Source of the DNA: Pseudocercospora fijiensis CIRAD86 | Lineage: Eukaryota > Ascomycota > Dothideomycetes > Mycosphaerellales > Mycosphaerellaceae | Length of the DNA: 64,000 nt | Assembly: GCF_000340215.1 (NCBI RefSeq) | Contig: NW_006921555.1 | Coordinates: 62,001 to 126,000, forward strand | Reading direction: 5' to 3' | Shown here: one piece after another, positions 2,246 to 11,739 of the stretch | How the letters are laid out: every line of letters starts with the position of its first letter | Numbering within the stretch: position 1 is the first letter of the stretch | Made by a program: the position numbers and the translations under genes | The notes under the pieces: generated by a model | Told to the model about the DNA's origin: nothing | The model's input: only the letters and a program-made list of their open reading frames with translations | Database searches by the model: none

Positions 2246-2319
2246 TGCCGGTACGGGGAGAACCCTATACCTCCGAGAGAGGAACTATACCGCTATTTTA
2301 GTAGTTTTTAAATTATTTG

Positions 2320-2339
2320 TAGACCCCGTAGTAGTTCGG
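2320..2339 (+). repeat. Left terminal inverted repeat of hAT C
   Basis: It reads TAGACCCCGTAGTAGTTCGG, probably CAGACCCC... before RIP, as hAT ends often begin CA. After it the two ends remain loosely similar for some tens of bases (TTTAGTTT, GGTTTGG stretches). The direct ATTATTTG duplication lies just outside. Confidence 0.9.
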
Positions 2340-2455
2340 TTTCCGAACTACTAAACGTATATAGTTTAGTTTCTTAGCGGCGAACTAGCTCCCTAGTTCC
2401 GGTTTGGTTTTTTCGAACTATATAGATTCCTAGTTTAAACTAGAGACTATATTAG

Positions 2456-2745
2456 TTTTACTATAAGGACACTCTTATTCGACTGCCGGCTACGATTGCC
2501 GGCTATAATAGTAACTATATTATATTTGCTGTGCTCTTTTGCCGTTACTAGGGCGTAGTTATCGTTACTAGGGCGTAGTTTTACTATAAGGACACTCTTA
2601 TTCGACTGCCGGCTACGATTACTAGCTATAATAGTTACTAGGTTATATTTACTACGCTCTATTACCGTTGCTATAGCGTAGTTGCTATTACTAGGGCGTA
2701 GTTGCTATTACCGGGGCGTAGTTGCCGTAGTTGCGAAAGCTTACT
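2456..2745 (+). repeat. Subterminal tandem repeats of hAT C
   Basis: Two units with a period of about 123 bp begin TTTTACTATAAGGACACTC at 2,456 and 2,579. Each contains the motif GCCGGCTACGATT followed by a second GCCGGCTATAATAG-like motif (altered in unit two). They end in shorter repeats of GTTACTAGGGCGTAGTT. This is the first and densest cluster of the GCCGGCTA motif family that recurs through the element. Subterminal repeats of this kind are typical transposase-binding regions in hAT elements; that role is inferred. Confidence 0.8.
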
Positions 2746-2879
2746 TATATAACGTTACGTAGGCGGCAACAATTAGGGCTTCGCGATATTCTTATACCTT
2801 TTAACTTCTTCCTCTATACCTATACCGATAATAACTACTATCCGCTACGCCCTGCCCCTTTTCCTTATAATAGTAAGAG

Positions 2880-3235
2880 AGAAGCGCGCTACGCGCTAAA
2901 TAGAAGATAGAACTAAAGACCGCGAGTTTATTTTGCCTAGGTATCTAACTAAAAAGCGTAAGACTAAAGAGGAGTACTCCTCGAAGAAGAATTCCGTACG
3001 AGACCGCGAGAGAAAGGAGAAGATAGATAAGGATAAAAGAGCTAAGGATAAGAGAAGAAAGGCGCGGAATAAGGCATTCTATCGATAGCTAGCGCCTATA
3101 GAAAAAAGTAAAGGTTAGAATAAGAAGACAACCTAAGAGAAGGCTAAGAGAAGGAAAGAATTACGGCTAGTTTTCGAGCGTAAAGTTCTAGTAGCGTAAG
3201 TTAATCTAGCTAGCGGCCGTAGCTAGTAGCTATAG
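2880..3235 (+). pseudogene. Lys/Arg-rich protein in hAT C
   Basis: A reading frame dense in Lys, Arg and Glu (…RKEKIDKDKRAKDKRRKA…) with RIP stops runs from near 2,880 to 3,235. The composition suggests a nuclear or nucleic-acid-binding protein or a disordered linker. No domain was recognised. It may be an exon of the next ORF, since the intervening stretch also holds a GCCGGTA motif near 3,249. Both ends are uncertain. Confidence 0.4.
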
Positions 3236-3299
3236 TCGGCAGATATAGCCGGTATATTGTTCTTTAAGACGTTAACTAATAGTATTTAGACCTATAGCC

Positions 3300-4400
3300 G
3301 CTATCTCTATCGATACGACCGATAGTAACGGAGATATTTAGATAGCCGAGAACAATAATACTAGAGTTTAGGATGCCGCGATAGAGCTTAATACTACGAA
3401 TAAAGGAACTAAAAAAAGCGAGGATATACTATACGTCGATCTAGTAATAGGTGTAGTCTTAGGGCCTAACGCTATAAACGATAAGCGCTAGGAGTAGATC
3501 GAGTATAGTTAAAGAGACGAGATACTAGTAAAGGGCTAAGGTATAAGTCCTATTAATCTAGAAAATTATAGTTAAAGCTACTACGAAAAGCTAGCAAGGA
3601 TTGGAATCGAGACTAGTTATCTTTATATCCTCGATATAGAGTAGAAGTTTCTTTATTAGTATTAGAGCGAAGCCTTTACGTCTATAAAGGCAAAGTAGCT
3701 TGCGATTAATACGATCGGGGCTAGGTATCTAGGGACGGTAGAAGTATTACTAAAGAAGGAAGGGATATAGGTAATTATTCTATACTCGGTATATATAGCC
3801 GGCGTTTGTAGCCGGTAGATACTAATAGTTAAATAGAAAGCGTTTCTCGAGGGTAGAGTACTACTACTATATAAAATCTTTACTAAGGTAGAGAGGGCTT
3901 ATATCCGGTATCTAAGCTACTAGTAGGATAGGTTAGTGTTAGAATTTTCTAAATCTCTATATAAGCCTCCGAAGGATTACCTATTTTAGCGATACGGCTT
4001 TATCTTAACTACTCTATAGGTACCCGACGAAGCTCGAGCGCTCTTTAAGGTCTTTACTAAGAAGCGGAAGGAGTTCGAGGATTAGGATTAGTTAATAGAG
4101 CTATTAGTTAGTCTTAGGTTTCGTAGTTAGACTCGGCCTAAGTATTTGCTTATCGAGTATCTTATACCGAAAGAGGATAGATTAAGACTAAAAACGAGCT
4201 TAGATTCGTTAGGTATAGTAGCTCGGTTCCGTTAGTAGGAGAGAGCCGCCGTATAGAAGGCAAAATTTAGGTAGTTAGGGTAGCTAGGAAAGAAATTCTA
4301 GTAGTTAGGCTAGCTAGGGTAGCTAGGAAAAAAAATCTAGTAGTTAAGTAGCTAGGAAACAAAAAAAAAGGTAGCTAGCTATTTACTACCTAGCTATTCC
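3300..4400 (+). pseudogene. Unrecognised gene in hAT C (plus strand)
   Basis: A long plus-strand frame, clearest from about 3,528 to 4,350, has stops only at likely Gln/Trp codons. It includes stretches such as GIETSYLYILDIE and FKVFTKKRKEFED. It ends in a Gln-Leu-Gly repeat encoded by the GTAGTTAGGGTAGCTAGG-type repeats at 4,268-4,370. The protein would be charged and mostly soluble. I do not recognise a family. It could be an accessory protein of the transposon. A GCCGG motif pair at 3,797-3,825 lies within or between exons. Confidence 0.45.
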
Positions 4401-4539
4401 TAACGATACGATACTATAAAAGAAAGGGTGTTTCCCTATAGCTACTAGTATACATCTACTACTCCTAAGTCCTTACCTTACTGTTCGAAACTTTAAAATA
4501 TACCGACTAATATTATATATATACTAGGCGCTATACTAG

Positions 4540-5175
4540 GAAGGGTAATAACGAGACAATAGTCGAAATAGTCTAGTATACGAGCGAGATTGCGACAACG
4601 TCGAGAGGAGGTCGTATACTTACCTTCGAGCCTATCGAGTCCTAGACGACGATTAGGACTAGATTTATCCTCTCCGAATCCTAGTAGTAGGAATTTATTA
4701 TAGGGTACTACTACCTAGTCCTTACCTTTACGGAGTCTAAGTAGACGGTTGTTCGGAGATATAAGAATATCGAGCATTAACCCGGAAATCTTCGAAAAGG
4801 CTAGCTAGGCGTATCTTTAGAGACCCGAGTATATAGAGTAGTTTAATTAATAGGTCTATAAGATATAGTTCCCTTTATACTTACGTTCGAAGGAGTATAA
4901 ACTCCGGAAGTACTCGATACGATAGGGTAGTAAGGAGCGAACGGATATATTCTAGAAGTTCTTTATAGAGGGGGCATTATACCGTTATACGACTTCTCGA
5001 CTTAAAGGTTAACTAGTAATTGTCTATAACTTCTACGGTTTAATCTTAAAATACCCGATACTAGGGGATAGGAACTTATCGCCTACGAACTGTCTCTATT
5101 CTAAACGGTATCGGGAATCTTAAGGAGCGAGGAGAGTTAATATAGATATAGCGTTCTAGAAAGAGGTACGTCTTC
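4540..5175 (+). pseudogene. Charged ORF upstream of hAT transposase
   Basis: A plus-strand frame covers about 200 codons (for example NPEIFEKAS then FNFYGLILKYPILGDRNLSP-like text around 5,025-5,085) and ends at the GCCGGCTATAGCT repeat cluster. It may be the N-terminal exon of the hAT transposase or a separate gene. No zinc-finger ligands can be made out, but RIP would have turned them to Tyr. Confidence 0.4.
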
Positions 5176-5181
5176 TAAAAT

Positions 5182-5229
5182 GCCGGCTATAGCTGCCGGC
5201 TATAGCTACCGGCTATAGCTACCGGCTAC
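5182..5229 (+). repeat. GCCGGCTATAGCT x4 cluster
   Basis: Four tandem 13-bp units (GCCGGCTATAGCT, the last two starting ACCGG) lie just before the transposase frame. It is one of the recurrent motif clusters of element C, also seen near 2,480, 3,797, 7,586, 9,300, 9,491, 9,547, 10,111, 10,730 and 11,521. Confidence 0.8.
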
Positions 5230-7525
5230 TTTAATTAACCGTAGAGATCTAGCTAATTATTATAGGCTACGCTTAGGGAAGCTCTAGGATTAAAGGCTAC
5301 CGATTTCTTACCCGAAGACTTTAAGTAACTAGTAAACGAAATGCTAGCTATAAACGGTCTTCCGGAAGACTTCTACGAAAGGGAGTCTATATAGAAGATA
5401 TACCTATATCTTATAAACTACCCTCCCCTATTTCTCGGCGCGACAATATAGCGTATTATATTTAAAAAGAATAAAGAGGCTACGTTAGACAATATTCGGG
5501 AGATCCTCCGTAATACTCGCTAAGTAGCTATTGCTATCGATAGCTAGTTAAGCCGGACTATAAGTCCCTCCTTCCTCTCGATTATACTATATTTATTAAT
5601 TCGGATTAGAAACTCTAGGAACTTATAATCGGATTCCCTAAAATTCTAGGTTCCTATACTAGTAAGGATATAGCGAAGCTTGTCTATACGGTAATAGATA
5701 GGGTTAGCGTAATAACGAAACTAATCTCGATTACTACGGACAACGCTAGTAATAATCGAACATTATATAAGGCGTTATATATACAATTTACTCGTATATG
5801 TCTTTAAAATTACTAATCGTATCGATAGGGTCGAGTACGTAGAGGAGATTATAAGGTCTATAATCTAGCTTAATCTTCCGAATATTAAGCTCGCTCCGAT
5901 TCCGGATACGTACGATAATACGTACGATAATAACGATAAAGAGGAGCCTATTAATAGCCCTAGCCCTATTAAATCGGAGCTAACGTCGATACTAGTTATA
6001 TCCTTATAGAAGTTTCCCTACCTAGCTTATATAGTTTAAATCGCGATCTAAGCCCTCTTTAAGACGCTTAAAATTGCACTATTAAACGACGACTAATAGA
6101 AGATCCTAGATAAGGATAAAGCAAAGTCGAAAGTCGAGAAACTCGTTATAGTAATAAGACAGGATAAGGTAGATAGCCTCGCTCTCGTTTTATATAAGGT
6201 ATAACTTTTATCCGTAGCTAGTACCCGTAGCCGGCTACCTAGTATAGTTCTAACTCTTTTTCTCTAGCTTCGTCGTCTAGTAATATATACGAACTCGAGC
6301 TTATAGAGATATAACCGATTCGAGGCTATTTAAAAGAACCTAATCGAGCGCCCTAAAACCGATACCTAGAATATCGTATAGAATAAGCGATAGCAAAAGC
6401 GGCCTCCTTAGCGCCTACTCCGTTTTACCTAAGACGTTAAAACCCCGTTCGATTCGAGATTCTATATAGTTATAAGGGGATATACTTTACGTACCGCTCT
6501 CGAGATCTATTAGAGTTCCGAGGGTATTAAGTAGCTCGGGCTTACCCCTACCGAATAGCGCTAAGTAGAGTATCTCGTCGATATTAGCAAGTATTACGCG
6601 AAGGTTACTACTACGATTAGAAGAACCCGAGAACCGACGATCTACCTTATTTTTACGTACTATAACTAGCTCTTTAACGAGCTCGACGAAACCGTAGCTA
6701 AGCTAGCTAAGAAGAGCGTTCCCTAGAAAGTAGCTATAACGAAAGCTATAGATACCTCCTATACTAAGTTATATAAATATTATAGTACTACCTTTTAGTC
6801 GTTCGGGGATATCTATAGCGTTACGTACTTGCTTACCCCGGTAGAAAAGGATATATACTAGTAGAAGCTAGAGAAAAAGGGGGACGAGGAATAGCGTAAG
6901 TATTACTAGACTATTCTAGTCTAAATGCAGCTCCTATAAAGAAAAAGAAGGTTTAGAAGGCTCCGATATTATACCTGTTTCGTAGGTAGGAAGTAGAGGT
7001 AGAAGAGGAAGTAACTACTAAAGTAAATTAAGAAGAGTTCGATCTCTATCGGCGCGTAGGTAAGTACTAAACCCGTAGGCTTAGAAAGAGGGCTAATAAT
7101 CTCTAGATCTTACCGGTCTTCTAGACGAATTCGGAGACGATATTCTCGCTATATAGTAGTAGTTAGAGCCTAAGTTTCTAACGATAGCGTCGGTCGCTCG
7201 GGACGTCCTCGCTATACCGAGCGTAGATATAGGCTATAAGAGGTCTTTTAGTATCGCTTATTACTAGGGCCGCTTTAATCGAATATACTCGCCTACTATC
7301 TTCGAATCTATTATAGTATTCCGATACTATCTCCTCTACTAGAGTCGCTAAGGCAGGATACTTAAGATTATACTAAAGGAGTTAATCGAGGAATTAGAAA
7401 ACCTTAAGATCGAGGAAACCTAGGAGCGTAAAGAGAATACGAAATTTAGTCTAAGCGAAACCTTAATTAGCGATAACGAAGAGGAGGAGGGCGGAGGTAG
7501 AAGGCGATACTAGGTCGAGAAGCGA
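5230..7525 (+). pseudogene. hAT-family transposase (degenerate)
   Basis: This is the cut-and-paste transposase of element C. The RNase H-like part is recognised by a GFPKILGSYTSKDIA stretch followed by SITTDNASNN (about 5,630-5,760), matching the hAT pattern of a GxHTGxNI-like region then the second catalytic Asp in TDNASNN. LPYLAYIV near 6,020 matches the hAT CLAHxxNL motif with Cys and His now Tyr. Further on, YLIFTYYNQLFNEL and the GDIYSVTYLLTP stretch (6,640-6,840) match the hAT mid-region. The C-terminal dimerisation domain at about 7,140-7,335 reads TIASVARDVLAIPS, then a RSFSIA motif, like the family's LSIPATS...ERVFS. RIP stops are frequent. Start and introns are unresolved. Confidence 0.85.
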
Positions 7526-7583
7526 AAACGTATATAGGCTTAGAGTAGCTTTAAGGAAACGAAGCGTTTACGTAGAAGGTAAT

Positions 7584-7612
7584 ATAGCCGGCGTATATAG
7601 CCGGTATATATC
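7584..7612 (+). repeat. GCCGGC motif pair between transposase and histone gene
   Basis: ATAGCCGGCGTATATAGCCGGTATAT is a short paired form of the element's recurrent motif. It lies in the gap between the end of the transposase and the start of the first histone-fold gene. It could be promoter-proximal. Confidence 0.6.
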
Positions 7613-7893
7613 TTTAATATATTTCGAATTCCTAGGACCTAAACAGACTAGTTGCTATAGCAACCTACCCCGCTTATATACAGACTATTTCTAATTCTCT
7701 ATTCGCTCTTCCTCTCCTTCTTCCCTTTCCCTATATTCTTAAAGATAAATATACCTTAAGTATTCCGCTCTTCGGGCCTTCCTAAGCCGGCTACCTACCC
7801 TTCCTTAGGCTACTACCCTTTATACGAATCTAACGATAACCTACTAAGGCGGTTTAATAGAAGACTATTTGTTCTAGAAGGCAAGAAGTATAA

Positions 7894-9295
7894 ATGTCTC
7901 CTTACGATTATATACTTATTAATTTTCTAGGTCCTACCGATATACCCTCGTCGCCTAAACGCGTAGATAAATATCTTTAGAGGCTAAAGGGTAAGGGTAA
8001 AGTAAGCTAAGTATAGGGAGACCGTAGCGAGAACGAGATATCGGAAGAGTAAGACTCTCCGTAGTATATACGAAGGAAAGGGGTTCCTCGGAAAATAGTA
8101 CCGAAAAACAAGAAGGCCTTAGGTAGATAGGAGAAGGCTAAAAAGAGTAGGCGGACGAAGGCTATCGCGAAGAAAAGTTATCTTTCTATTAAAAAAAAGG
8201 GAATAAGGTAGGACTCGACGATAAAGAAGCGGCGCTTTAAACTAGGTACTATTAGCCTTCGCTAGATCCGGCTTTTCTAAAATAAAAGAGGGACCGAGCT
8301 TTTAATCCCTAAGACTCTCTTCTAGCGACTCGTTCGAGAAATTATATTAGATTTTCGGTCTAGTATACGATTTACGGCTAAAGCGATTAGTACTCTTTAG
8401 GAAGCTACGGAGGCATTTCTCGTAACCGAGCTTAAGCTTTTAAACCTCCTTACTATCTATACGAAGCGGGTTACTCTTCGAAATAAAGATATATAGCTTC
8501 TAGCTAAAATTCGGCGTCGGTTTATAGCGGATTAGTTAGAAATTGTATTTAGTCGTTAGATTAACCTAGGAGGAGGCCTATTTTCGCATCCTTTTACCGG
8601 ATATAGGTACCGGCTATATTTCTAATTTTATCTCCGCGCCGTCCCTAAATCTAAGGTACGAAGTAGAAACCTAGCGCTCTATATTTATCCGGCTATTACA
8701 GAGACGAGCTATATTTAGATTAGTTTCTTCGCATATCGCGACCTAGCGGGTAGTAAGCGAAAGGGCGATAGAACGTTTATAATACGTCTCTATTTAGACC
8801 TAAAATACAAAGGTCCTAAGGAGCCCTAGCATCCTAACTATAAGGAGATTCTTTAGCATTAGCACTTTGATCCTCTATACTACGAGGCAGATAGTAAGCC
8901 TACGAGAGAGAAACTTTAACGAGAAATTCTCTATAATGCGTAGCGCTATTATATAGCTATAGATACGCACTAAGTCCGGCAACTCGAAGAAGAATTAAGA
9001 TAGCGTATTAGCGACCGAGGAAGAGATCGATAGTATACTAGTAGAGTCGAGGTTATATAAGCGAAGCATAAGATAATATAGGCTCTTAGTCGTATAGAGT
9101 AACGTACTATATAAATAACTAGGCGTACTACTCTTATTTACTTACGACCTATATCCTAGGATACTCTTCTCGTACTTTTTATACTCTTTTCTAATACCTT
9201 ACCTATAAGCGCTCCGCGACAACCGAGTAAATATAAGCTATAGGGTTTCCGCTCGGTACCTTAGCCTCCGAGATAGGGCGGAGTTGAATTTAGAG
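7894..9295 (+). pseudogene. Histone H3-fold protein with long basic tail and C-terminal extension
   Basis: A rare surviving ATG at 7,894 opens a frame with a 113-residue Lys/Arg-rich N-tail, then a complete H3 histone fold from 8,233 to about 8,530. Landmarks in order are RFKLGTISLR (H3 RYRPGTVALRE), IRLF-N, TELLIPK (family ELLIRK), RLVREI, a DFRSSIRF stretch (family DFKTDLRF), STL-EATEAFLV (AALQEASEAYLV), TIYTKRVTL (AIHAKRVTI) and NKDI-LLAKIRRR. The frame continues in phase for a further 220 codons or so past the fold (FFAYRDLAGSKRKGDRTFII, then a coiled-coil-like Gln/Glu/Arg-rich part near 8,970-9,100). Every stop is TAG or TAA. The long divergent tail and the extra residues before ELL are more like centromeric H3 variants than canonical H3. 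Whether the extension is a fusion or a separate gene is unresolved. Confidence 0.82.
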
Positions 9296-9299
9296 CGAT

Positions 9300-9565
9300 A
9301 GCCGGCACTCGTAGCCGGCATATAGAGACGGTAGTAGGCCTTTTCCTACTAAATAACTAGCTTGTTTAGTATAGCCTACCTAATATTTCTTATATTTACT
9401 AGCAATAGGCCTAGGTTACTTATAAGATTACTATAGCTAGTAAAGGCATTACTAAAGAATATCTATACTATAGTAAGATACTATTATTACGCCGGCTATT
9501 TATTAAAAGGAGGCTTTCGCCTATTACTATGCCAGCTATATATGCCGGCTATATTTCAAAGTCTC
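9300..9565 (+). other. Intergenic region with GCCGGC motifs
   Basis: No coding frame was recognised. Copies of GCCGGC/GCCGGCTAT occur at 9,301, 9,317, 9,492 and 9,543. This is the spacer between the two histone-fold genes. Confidence 0.55.
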
Positions 9566-9622
9566 CCGTACCTGCCTTTTTTAGCCGTACCTGCCTTTTT
9601 TAGCCGTGCCTGCCTTCTTTCC
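9566..9622 (+). repeat. 19-bp tandem repeat upstream of H3-like gene
   Basis: Three units of CCGTACCTGCCTTTTTTAG (third diverged, CCGTGCCTGCCTTCTTT) lie about 250 bp before the H3-like reading frame. They keep CTGCC intact, so RIP was light here. They could be promoter elements of the H3-like gene; the function is inferred only from position. Confidence 0.7.
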
Positions 9623-9851
9623 TTGCTCTAACGTTACTATAATATAGGCTTACGCGAAGCTTACTCTATTGCCTAGCGATACCGCGACACTACCGCTATA
9701 TTTAACCTTCGCATCGATACCTATATCTCTACGCTCTATATCTACTACCTCTATAATACCCTCGCTCCGCGCGCGCCTTCGTACACCTTCGTAACGCACT
9801 TTTTTCCTTAATTCGACGACTTTTATAATACCGAGTCTACTTAACTAAGTT

Positions 9852-10640
9852 ACGACGCCTCGTAAGAAGGGACCTACTGCTTCTACGGGTCGTAATAAGA
9901 CCGGATATAGTAGAACGAGTATAGTATATTAACGTAAGAAGGCTACTACTACTACCGCTAGCTCCGGTACTAGAAAGGGCGTCGCGAGCAAGGCTCCGCG
10001 TAAGATAACGGCGGGTAAGGCTCTACGTAAGACGACGACTAGCGCTTCTACTACTAGTAGTAATAATCGTACGAAGCGTCGATAGCGCCTAGGAAGTAAG
10101 TCCTATTTATAGCCGGTAGCGTAGCTAGTAGCGTAGCCGGTAGCGTAGCCGGTATTCTTATTGTCTTTTTACTAACCCTTCTTTAGCCGTAGCCCTCCGT
10201 AAGATTCGGAAGTATTAGAAGAGTTCTAATCTCCTAATCCGTAAAGCTCCTTTCTAACGACTTGTTCGCGAAATTGCCTAGGTTTATAGAGTAGACCTTA
10301 GCTTCTAAGCCTCCGCGATAGGCGCCCTTTAAGAGGCTATAGAAGCCTACCTAGTTCGTATCTTCGAATGTGTGTTTCTCGTCTACCTCTTTTTAGACTA
10401 TACTAATACTATTTTAGCGGTTAGCCTTATAGCTATCTACGCGAAGCGTATAACGATTATAGACAACGATTTTAAAGCACTCGATTAGATTCTAAAAGGC
10501 TAGAATGTCTACATTCGAGATAGTGCTAGGTAGTATAGATATTCTAGTAGGAAGGGTATTCGTAGTGTCGTTTATAAGCTTTTCTATATATAAATTAAGC
10601 CGCTATTATACGGCGCTATATACCGCGCTCTAAATACTCT
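9852..10640 (+). pseudogene. Histone H3-like gene with two introns, in hAT C
   Basis: Exon 1 (to 10,095) encodes a Lys-rich H3-type tail, including ASKAPRKITAGKALRKTT, close in style to the H3 tail. A GT-AG intron at 10,096-10,196 (GTAAGT … ACTAACCCTTCTTTAG) interrupts the Thr codon of the R-P-G-T-V-A-L motif. Exon 2 then reads VALRKIRKY-KSSNLLIRKAPF, RLVREIA and SAIGAL-EAIEAYLVRIFE. A 47-bp intron at 10,370-10,416 (GTGTGT … TACTAATACTATTTTAG) follows. Exon 3 reads SVSLIAIYAKRITI then NDFKALD. With both introns out, the alignment to canonical H3 is gap-free through this core. Dashes are RIP stops at Gln positions. A C-terminal extension may run to about 10,640. The start codon is not visible. 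Confidence 0.88.
10096..10196 (+). other. H3-like gene intron 1 carrying GCCGGTAGC repeats
   Basis: The donor GTAAGT, branch-like CTAAC and acceptor TTTAG are all intact, and splicing restores the Thr codon of the PGTVAL motif. Its interior (10,110-10,155) is made of about three GCCGGTAGCGTA repeats plus a CTAGTAGCGTA variant, the same motif family found between the genes of element C. Confidence 0.85.
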
Positions 10641-10719
10641 CTAAGTATATATATATAGTATAGTATGCTTTATTAGCCGTACGGAATAGAAGTCTTCGAA
10701 AATCCCGTTAGTACTAAGG

Positions 10720-10765
10720 AGTTAAAAGGCCGGCTACGCTACTAGCTACGCTGCTAGGTTTTTTA
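10720..10765 (+). repeat. GGCCGGCTACGCTACTAGCTACG motif copy
   Basis: GCCGGCTACGCTACTAGCTA at 10,730 recurs almost exactly at 11,521 (GCCGGCTACGCTACTAGCTA). The two bracket the minus-strand gene of element C. Confidence 0.65.
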
Positions 10766-10825
10766 TAGAACTAAAAGAAGATAGACATTCCGGTTAATTT
10801 GTATTAGTTTAGATTTTTATAAAAA

Positions 10826-10894
10826 GAAAACAGGGAAAAATAAGGAAGGTTAAAGAGCCTAATGCTTATAGTTATAGGCATTGTCCCTGTTTTC
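10826..10894. repeat. Imperfect hairpin with GAAAACAGGGA arms
   Basis: GAAAACAGGGA (10,826-10,836) and TCCCTGTTTTC (10,884-10,894) are perfect inverted arms. Between them lies a second near-palindrome, AATGCTTATA/TATAGGCATT. CA and TG are preserved. It may be a 3'-end processing or termination structure of the adjacent minus-strand gene, or a small foldback insertion. Confidence 0.6.
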
Positions 10895-11420
10895 TAGACT
10901 ATATTATATACCTGCCTTCGCAACTCTACCTAATACTCCCTCTAAATATCCTTATACTCTACCTACTAGAAATTCAACTAGGTACCTAGACCTATAGCTG
11001 CCTCTATATCTTTTACTATCTTCTATAGGTTAAAGGACTCCTCTATAGCAGCCTCTACCTCCTTATATAATACGAAGTTACTGCCTGCCCTACCCTTAAT
11101 ATCTCCTAAATAACTAAGAGTTCTAAGGAACGAACTAGTATTCGGCCTTAGTATAGCGAGTAACTAGTAGAACGTTGTATAGAGCTGCCTTATAGCTCTT
11201 TTATATACTATACCGATACCGAGGCAGGAGCTATCCTAGTACTTAATATTAGAGAATAGTTTAGTTAGAAAGTATTAGAACTTTTTAAGGAGGGCTTCTA
11301 GGGAAATCGATACGTTCTACCTAGATCTAGATAATAATATTCTACCGAGTAGTTAGGGGATTAAATAGCGAGCGAGAGGATAAAATTCATACCTAATAAG
11401 TGTAGTTTCTAAACTAAACT
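10850..11420 (-). pseudogene. Unrecognised minus-strand gene at right end of hAT C
   Basis: The minus-strand frame is unusually clean: long open stretches such as KRAIRQLYTTFYQLL, SYLGDIKGRAGSNF and YKEVEAAIEESFNL, with only a few TAG codons. It reads towards the H3-like gene. CA/TG content is higher than in the rest of the element, so RIP was weaker. The protein appears soluble and helical. I do not recognise the family. An ATG in another frame at about 11,390 is not clearly its start. Confidence 0.5.
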
Positions 11421-11704
11421 ATAATAGCTTGTATATGTATATACTTTTAATTAGTTAGTGCCCTTAGCTAATTGTCTATAGATTTAGGGTTATATAAGTA
11501 CCTTCCTATAACTAAAAAATGCCGGCTACGCTACTAGCTATACTCTCGTATCTTATAAAGGGCTTGCTTCGAGTTACGTAGACATTCTTATACTTCTTAG
11601 AAACCGATAAATTCTATAGTTCGAACTAGCTAATCCTGTAGTTGCTTAGCAAACTAACCTAAACCAAACTAGATCTTCGGCTTAGCAAACTAAACTAAAC
11701 CATC

Positions 11705-11724
11705 CCGAACTACTACGGGGTCTA
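11705..11724 (-). repeat. Right terminal inverted repeat of hAT C
   Basis: It is the exact reverse complement of 2,320-2,339, followed by the 8-bp duplication ATTATTTG (11,725-11,732). Confidence 0.9.
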
Positions 11725-11739
11725 ATTATTTGTTCTCCC

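What the first reader, a model, noticed from the sequence alone, without database searches (positions are those of the whole stretch)
7894..10640. A hAT transposon carries two histone H3-fold genes
Seen: between perfect hAT terminal repeats with an 8-bp duplication there are two plus-strand genes with complete H3 landmarks (PGTVALR/PGTISLR-like, LLIRKAPF/LLIPK, RLVREI, EAxEAxLV, AIxAKRxTI). One has two GT-AG introns and an H3-like tail; the other has a 113-residue basic tail, extra residues before ELL, and a long C-terminal extension. Known: eukaryotic H3 and CenH3 share this fold. Inference: the element mobilises its own histone variants, perhaps to alter chromatin at its copies, resist silencing or mark excision sites. 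I know of no named transposon group defined by such cargo.
Basis: partly seen in the sequence, partly recalled or inferred. Interest (0 to 1): 0.95.

Follow-up and report, generated by a model that had tools for sequence, protein, structure and literature searches.

The report
Dead hAT transposon carrying two histones
A large, mutation-killed jumping gene in a fungal genome carries two histone H3-like genes; this has been published, but one of the two keeps introns, which does not fit the published account of how the histones got there.

Summary
The window carries one complete hAT element (2320-11724, 9,405 bp) with perfect 20-bp terminal repeats, an 8-bp target duplication (ATTATTTG) and two plus-strand histone H3-like genes, A and B, riddled with RIP-type mutation. 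It is not new: Dhillon et al. 2019 (PMC6710886) described this family in Pseudocercospora fijiensis, which this genome matches by inference (784 H3-like copies, two per full-length element). Manning et al. 2013 described a hAT with an H3-like gene in Pyrenophora tritici-repentis. The published reading is capture of a host H3 transcript as a passenger. My results argue against that for gene B, which has two spliceosomal introns; the second, 48 bp, equals the reported '16-residue insertion'. Gene A is a different, longer-tailed H3; the tree places it beside two intact variants outside canonical H3 and CenH3, without excluding a shared origin with B. Both genes occur in the three subfamilies sampled. 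Between subfamilies 1 and 2, transversions in the transposase and B's histone fold favour third codon positions; A's fold has too few changes to tell. I favour resident element genes over a dead-on-arrival retrocopy. What the histones did for the element is unknown; acting on its own chromatin is a hypothesis.

The parts
2312..2319 (.). left 8-bp target-site duplication ATTATTTG
   Evidence: identical to 11725-11732
2320..2339 (+). left terminal inverted repeat, 20 bp
   Evidence: exact reverse complement of 11705-11724; 552 genome matches to the degenerate repeat, 0 in the reversed control
3200..4490 (+). possible further ORF in frame 2322, broken; limits by eye
   Evidence: protein-like stretches by eye; no Pfam family; transversions by codon position 16/14/21 over 3604-4490, not significant
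4830..5100 (+). possible N-terminal part of the transposase, frame 2322, broken
   Evidence: transversions by codon position 1/2/9, but the frame was picked after seeing the phase; no Pfam family
5290..7470 (+). hAT transposase, broken, in several frames; TTDNASNN block within 5619-5807 (hAT motif recalled); dimerisation region near 7160-7260
   Evidence: PF05699 14.3 bits, below its 21.4 cut-off; transversions by codon position 23/18/47, or 18/18/36 in the single frame 2320 over 5290-6950
7894..8567 (+). H3-like gene A, no intron seen, basic tail of 117 residues then H3 fold 8245-8517, broken by stops
   Evidence: PF00125 69.6 bits; same gene in subfamilies 2 and 3
9838..10095 (+). H3-like gene B, exon 1 (tail); start codon not determined
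   Evidence: frame 9642 reading joins exon 2 at intron 1
10096..10186 (+). gene B intron 1, 91 bp, GTAAGT...CTAAC...TTTAG
   Evidence: GTAAGT, CTAAC/T and TTTAG or CTTAG in 5 of 5 copies, 69-103 bp
10187..10369 (+). gene B exon 2 (GTVALR to FE of the H3 fold)
10370..10417 (+). gene B intron 2, 48 bp, GTGTGT...CTAAT...TTTTAG; equals the '16-residue insertion' of the literature
   Evidence: 48 bp in 24 of the 25 instances found, one not measurable; donor GT in 9 of 25, AT in 16
10418..10536 (+). gene B exon 3 (rest of H3 fold to about 10498, then extension)
11705..11724 (-). right terminal inverted repeat, 20 bp
11725..11732 (.). right 8-bp target-site duplication ATTATTTG

Best explanation
This is a RIP-inactivated copy of an old, once autonomous hAT family that carried, besides its transposase, two structurally different histone H3-like genes as regular residents. 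SHOWN: the element, both H3 folds, B's introns (by sequence signals), the presence of both genes in three subfamilies (the third sampled at one place), and a third-codon-position excess of transversions in B's fold and in the transposase between subfamilies 1 and 2. INFERRED: B came in as a genomic, intron-bearing H3 gene and not as a transcript; A came from a different, variant-type H3; both were expressed while the element was active; complete units spread by cut-and-paste transposition and were then mutated by RIP together with the rest of the element. Most likely role, weakly supported: the H3 variants entered nucleosomes of the host nucleus, and the element gained from altered chromatin or histone supply on its own copies.
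For: Repeats and duplication. 40 places scored, the window's own among them, at 95-100% identity over the histone part. Pfam histone in both. B's introns: intron 1 with GTAAGT, CTAAC/T and T/CTTAG in 5 of 5 copies; intron 2 of 48 bp in 24 of 25 instances, donor GT in 9 and AT in 16, the change expected of RIP; leaving it out restores exact H3 spacing. B intron 1 lies one codon from a host H3 intron (my reading). A and B in subfamilies 2 (L036, L038, L040) and 3 (L041, L042, one place). Transversions by codon position, window against L036: B fold 7/7/19, one-sided p 0.004; transposase 23/18/47, p 8e-5, frames partly picked; two noncoding stretches 11/10/11 and 8/5/8. In the window's two folds 9 of 10 in-frame stops sit where host H3 has glutamine. 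Of 16 repeat pairs of full-length size, 13 hold a listed H3. A groups with P0002 and Clarireedia P0308, support 94/85 and 90/91 (97/86 and 91/89).
Against: A's fold shows no significant codon bias (4/2/5), nor do the tails of A (6/9/9) and B (7/13/4, third position lowest). B's bias against subfamily 3 (L042) is not significant: 6/5/9, p 0.19. Against host H3 the third-position excess is small (window A 14/14/18, B 12/9/21 in 80 codons). Several segments were tested, so p near 0.004 is modest, and the transposase p is optimistic. B's introns show fewer transversions than its exons (Fisher 6e-5 against L036; 0.17 against L042), which a simple selection picture does not predict. Joint origin of A and B is not rejected, p-AU 0.144. 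No intact element copy and no expression data were available. Dhillon et al. report a near full-length H3 with both exon-exon junctions and no intron after editing their de-RIPped consensus.
Confidence: 0.55

Rival explanations
1. Published reading: a host H3 transcript was captured once by a hAT element and amplified as a functionless passenger (transduplication), then mutated by RIP.
For: PMC6710886: most copies match only exon 3, exon-exon junctions recovered after de-RIPping, no intron seen. A shows no intron here either. A's fold and both tails show no significant codon bias.
Against: B has two introns with donor, branch and acceptor signals. A and B are 44% identical in the fold in the window copy (39 of 88) and differ in tail and spacing. 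Third-position excess in B's fold.
Confidence: 0.3
2. Gene A descends from a centromeric H3 (CenH3), so the element carried an H3 and a CenH3.
For: A's neighbours in the tree, P0002 and P0308, have a longer or CenH3-like loop 1 (ITWAETRDKEHHRF; TRWQ).
Against: A itself has canonical loop 1 length; A held with three CenH3 rows is rejected at p-AU 0.033; only three CenH3 rows were used.
Confidence: 0.08
3. The third-position excess in B reflects recombination or gene conversion with another H3-bearing element, not selection on this element's genes (not exclusive of the other readings).
For: B exons 2-3 are more diverged than B introns and than the transposase.
Against: Conversion of exons alone, between little-changed introns, is an odd requirement; donors would themselves have been selected H3 genes. 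Transversions within subfamily 2 showed no clear hot spot.
Confidence: 0.15

Closest known systems
H3-carrying hAT family of Pseudocercospora fijiensis and relatives (Dhillon et al. 2019, PMC6710886)
   Same: About 9.5 kb, 20-bp repeats, 8-bp duplication, two H3-like sequences per full element, strong RIP, intact host H3 on scaffold 6 (here contig C6); this window is a member by these marks
   Different: They describe both copies as a captured intronless transcript with a 16-residue insertion in the second; here that insertion is an intron, a further intron is present, and A and B look like different H3 types. They could not identify a dimerisation domain; a sub-threshold match is seen here
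hAT with H3L of Pyrenophora tritici-repentis (Manning et al. 2013, PMC3538342)
   Same: hAT transposase and divergent H3-like gene with tail insertions between terminal repeats; ESTs reported there
   Different: 5.6-kb and 2.3-kb forms, one H3L each, nearly identical copies; the 2019 paper reports little RIP and no similarity of element sequences. I had no sequence of it to compare
Pack-type transduplication (plant examples cited in the two papers)
   Same: host-type genes between transposon ends
   Different: Recalled: those are usually non-autonomous and carry fragments; here whole genes sit beside the transposase in the full-length element

Membership tests
hAT superfamily | 8-bp target-site duplication and short terminal inverted repeats | tested here: met
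hAT superfamily | hAT transposase with C-terminal dimerisation region (PF05699) | tested here: inconclusive
   14.3 bits against cut-off 21.4; other transposase pieces gave no hAT family; the published annotation reports DUF659 in the family
P. fijiensis H3-hAT family (PMC6710886) | about 9.5-9.9 kb, 20-bp repeat, 8-bp duplication, two H3-like sequences, RIP | tested here: met
   the window copy is 9,405 bp, slightly short; repeat letters not compared, as the paper's figure is not held
Histone H3 family | core histone fold by profile (PF00125) | tested here: met
   A 69.6 and B 94.7 bits
Canonical H3 | ARTKQTARKS tail | tested here: not met
   ARKS and TKQT absent in 4 of 4 A rows and 4 of 4 B rows, but AKKS stands in 3 of 4 A rows and KAPRK in 3 of 4 B rows; B rows lack the first residues and RIP may have altered letters
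CenH3 | longer loop 1 and grouping with CenH3 | tested here: not met
   A's loop 1 is of canonical length; A+CenH3 p-AU 0.033 with three CenH3 rows
Intronless retrocopy of host H3 | no introns | tested here: not met
   B has two; A shows none

The most novel reading that the evidence does not exclude
A lineage of fungal hAT transposons keeps its own histone H3 variants as working parts, one H3-type with introns and one of a variant type, both lacking the canonical ARKS tail motif. Their deposition on element copies would weaken H3K9-based silencing; the H3-bearing hAT of Pyrenophora would be another branch of this lineage or a parallel case.
Probability: 0.2. Interest if true: 0.85.

Novelty: already known. 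Interest (0 to 1): 0.42.

Why it matters
The presence of H3 genes in this hAT family is published. If the genes are resident and selected, and not passengers, then transposons have recruited histones to act on chromatin, and the published origin (transcript capture) needs correcting. The intron result is simple to check in public genomes and transcriptomes.

Tried and rejected
Sampling by histone hits cannot test whether full elements lack histones, so repeat pairs were used instead (100 of 552 repeat matches were listed). Overlap of 40 transposase hits with listed histone places gave 17 of 40, uninformative because the histone lists are cut (150 of 772 candidates, 40 of 500). A polymorphism count over ten main-family copies (part) mixed strands and was discarded; transversions within subfamily 2 (22, 20 and 26 in the three pairs) showed no clear hot spot. 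Intron borders used were off for intron 1 by 3 bases at the start and 19 at the end; one search repeats the counts with the right ones, and those are cited for A and B. Transposase frames were chosen by eye after the phase table, so their p values are optimistic; the frames of A and B were fixed by H3 landmarks. Further Pfam pieces gave nothing of use. Three protein searches were swamped by ordinary H3: at most 7,998 candidates were scored in each and 120 listed; I read 14 of 120 sequences. The trees use 15 and 12 of 318 listed proteins, picked by hand; P0073 (long branch), P0187 and P0225 were dropped between them.

Full report
WHAT IS THERE. The window lies in a 73.9-Mb genome of 30 contigs and is strongly biased to TpA and poor in CpA/TpG in all 16 of its 4-kb stretches, as RIP leaves it. 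The finding's coordinates cover the histone part of a larger element. Comparison with copies elsewhere showed shared sequence ending near 11,724. The terminal repeat TAGACCCCGTAGTAGTTCGG stands at 2320-2339 and, inverted and without mismatch, at 11705-11724, with ATTATTTG on both outer sides. The 16-base core has no third match in the window at up to 2 mismatches. In the genome the degenerate 20-base repeat has 552 matches, its reversed control none. Among the 100 places listed, 27 adjacent plus/minus pairs lie within 30 kb: 16 span 9.39-9.96 kb, 4 span 373 bp, 1 spans 5.2 kb and 6 span 15 kb or more; 13 of the 16 hold a histone place from the (cut) lists.

THE HISTONE GENES. With X at stops, A and B match the Pfam histone family at 69.6 and 94.7 bits against a cut-off of 26.4. 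A shows no intron; it has a basic tail of 117 residues, two extra residues before ELL, LLIPK (window and L041; LLILK in L036 and L038) instead of LLIRK, and an end in KIRRRF. B is split: exon 1 in one frame, exons 2 and 3 in another. Intron 1 is 91 bp in the window (69-103 bp in 5 copies) with GTAAGT, CTAAC or CTAAT, and TTTAG (CTTAG in L042). Intron 2 is 48 bp in 24 of 25 instances found in the window and 22 loci, one not measurable; its donor is GT in 9 of 25 and AT in 16, the change RIP makes of TpG. Without it, FE-SVSLIAIYAKR lines up residue for residue with host FE-DTNLCAIHAKR. Intron 1 lies one codon downstream of the position of a host H3 intron (my reading). In the window's two folds 9 of 10 in-frame stops stand at glutamines of host H3, the tenth at a glutamate. 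Of the 150 histone places scored, 2 are free of stops: host H3, and an exon that reads as host CenH3.

SUBFAMILIES AND SELECTION. Three subfamilies were sampled: the window's own, subfamily 2 (L036, L038, L040; 77-87% identical by segment, L036) and subfamily 3 (L041, L042, one place; 89% over A, 80% over B). A and B are in all three. RIP makes transitions only, so transversions were counted by codon position, window against L036. B's fold gives 7/7/19 (one-sided p 0.004), similar against L038 (p 0.004) and L040 (p 0.007), which are near relatives of L036 and not independent; against L042 it gives 6/5/9 (p 0.19). A's fold gives 4/2/5; the tails of A and B give 6/9/9 and 7/13/4. The transposase gives 23/18/47 (p 8e-5), with frames partly picked after the phase table, while two noncoding stretches give 11/10/11 and 8/5/8; a single transposase frame gives 18/18/36. 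So constraint is supported for the transposase, supported for B's fold in one of two independent comparisons, and untestable for A. Against host H3 the excess is small: A 14/14/18, B 12/9/21 over 80 codons. Unexplained: B's introns carry 2 transversions in 138 sites while exons 2-3 carry 33 in 264 (Fisher 6e-5; against L042 p 0.17).

RELATIVES. Profile searches of about 5.8 billion proteins, with only the candidates sharing most words scored, rank two non-standard entries first for A: P0001 (a tandem H3-like protein) and P0002 (164 aa, metagenomic). P0002 shares with A the two extra residues, LLIPK, the NLL block and RRRF. P0308, named 'histone H3 h3.3' of Clarireedia jacksonii, shares LLIPK and has LVAEF where A has LVTEL or LVTEF. 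In a tree of 23 rows A joins P0002 (94/85) and P0308 (90/91), and B lies among canonical H3. A plus B as one clade is not rejected (p-AU 0.144); A with CenH3 is weakly rejected (p-AU 0.033). Long branches and RIP-altered residues make this tree a lead only.

LITERATURE. Dhillon et al. 2019, PMC6710886 (parts 1-3 of 7, Discussion and Methods read) describe 784 H3-like copies in 471 hAT elements of P. fijiensis, 99 complete ones with 20-bp repeats and 8-bp duplications, one or two H3-like copies per element and two in each full-length one, a 16-residue insertion in the second, and conclude that a transcript or retrocopy was captured. Manning et al. 2013, PMC3538342 (passages and part 1 of section 20) report a 5.6-kb hAT with transposase, a central ORF and an H3-like gene that fits neither H3 nor CenH3, with ESTs. 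PMC13041039 (three passages) repeats the 784 copies. Six answered library searches turned up, in the listings, no other title on H3-carrying hAT elements and none on introns in them; the other papers were not opened (reviews listed there may cite these two), and most subscription journals are missing from the library.

JUDGEMENT. The system is already known, so novelty is low. What is added is a correction: one of the two genes has introns and the two genes look like different types, so capture of a single host transcript does not explain both. Together with presence in all subfamilies sampled and codon-position bias in B's fold and the transposase, resident and at least partly selected genes are the better account, at about 0.55. 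A chromatin role for the element remains a hypothesis.

Noticed in passing
genome G000, e.g. C1:8853279-8853651, C1:8896685-8897057, C1:10656734-10657106, C2:581713-582085: 373-bp pairs of the same terminal repeats: short non-autonomous relatives of the element, four among 27 adjacent pairs examined.
   Followed up: partly
L002 375-728 and 728-1089, also L004, L006, L007, L008: A tandem duplication of about 360 bp between genes A and B in some copies, which may explain the two length classes near 9.55 and 9.9 kb.
   Followed up: partly
window 2320-11724: A CCGGCTA/TAGCCGG-type motif occurs 34 times in the element (3.6 per kb) against 0.31 per kb in the rest of the window; several stand in B's intron 1.
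   Followed up: no
window 10096-10186 and 10370-10417: B's introns carry far fewer transversions between subfamilies 1 and 2 than B's exons 2-3.
   Followed up: partly
window 7160-7260: Sub-threshold hAT dimerisation match in a family where the 2019 paper could not identify that domain.
   Followed up: partly
proteins P0308 and P0002: Intact, unusual H3 variants with LLIPK and an acidic LVAEF; P0308 is annotated as H3.3 in Clarireedia jacksonii. Their genomic context could not be read here.
   Followed up: partly
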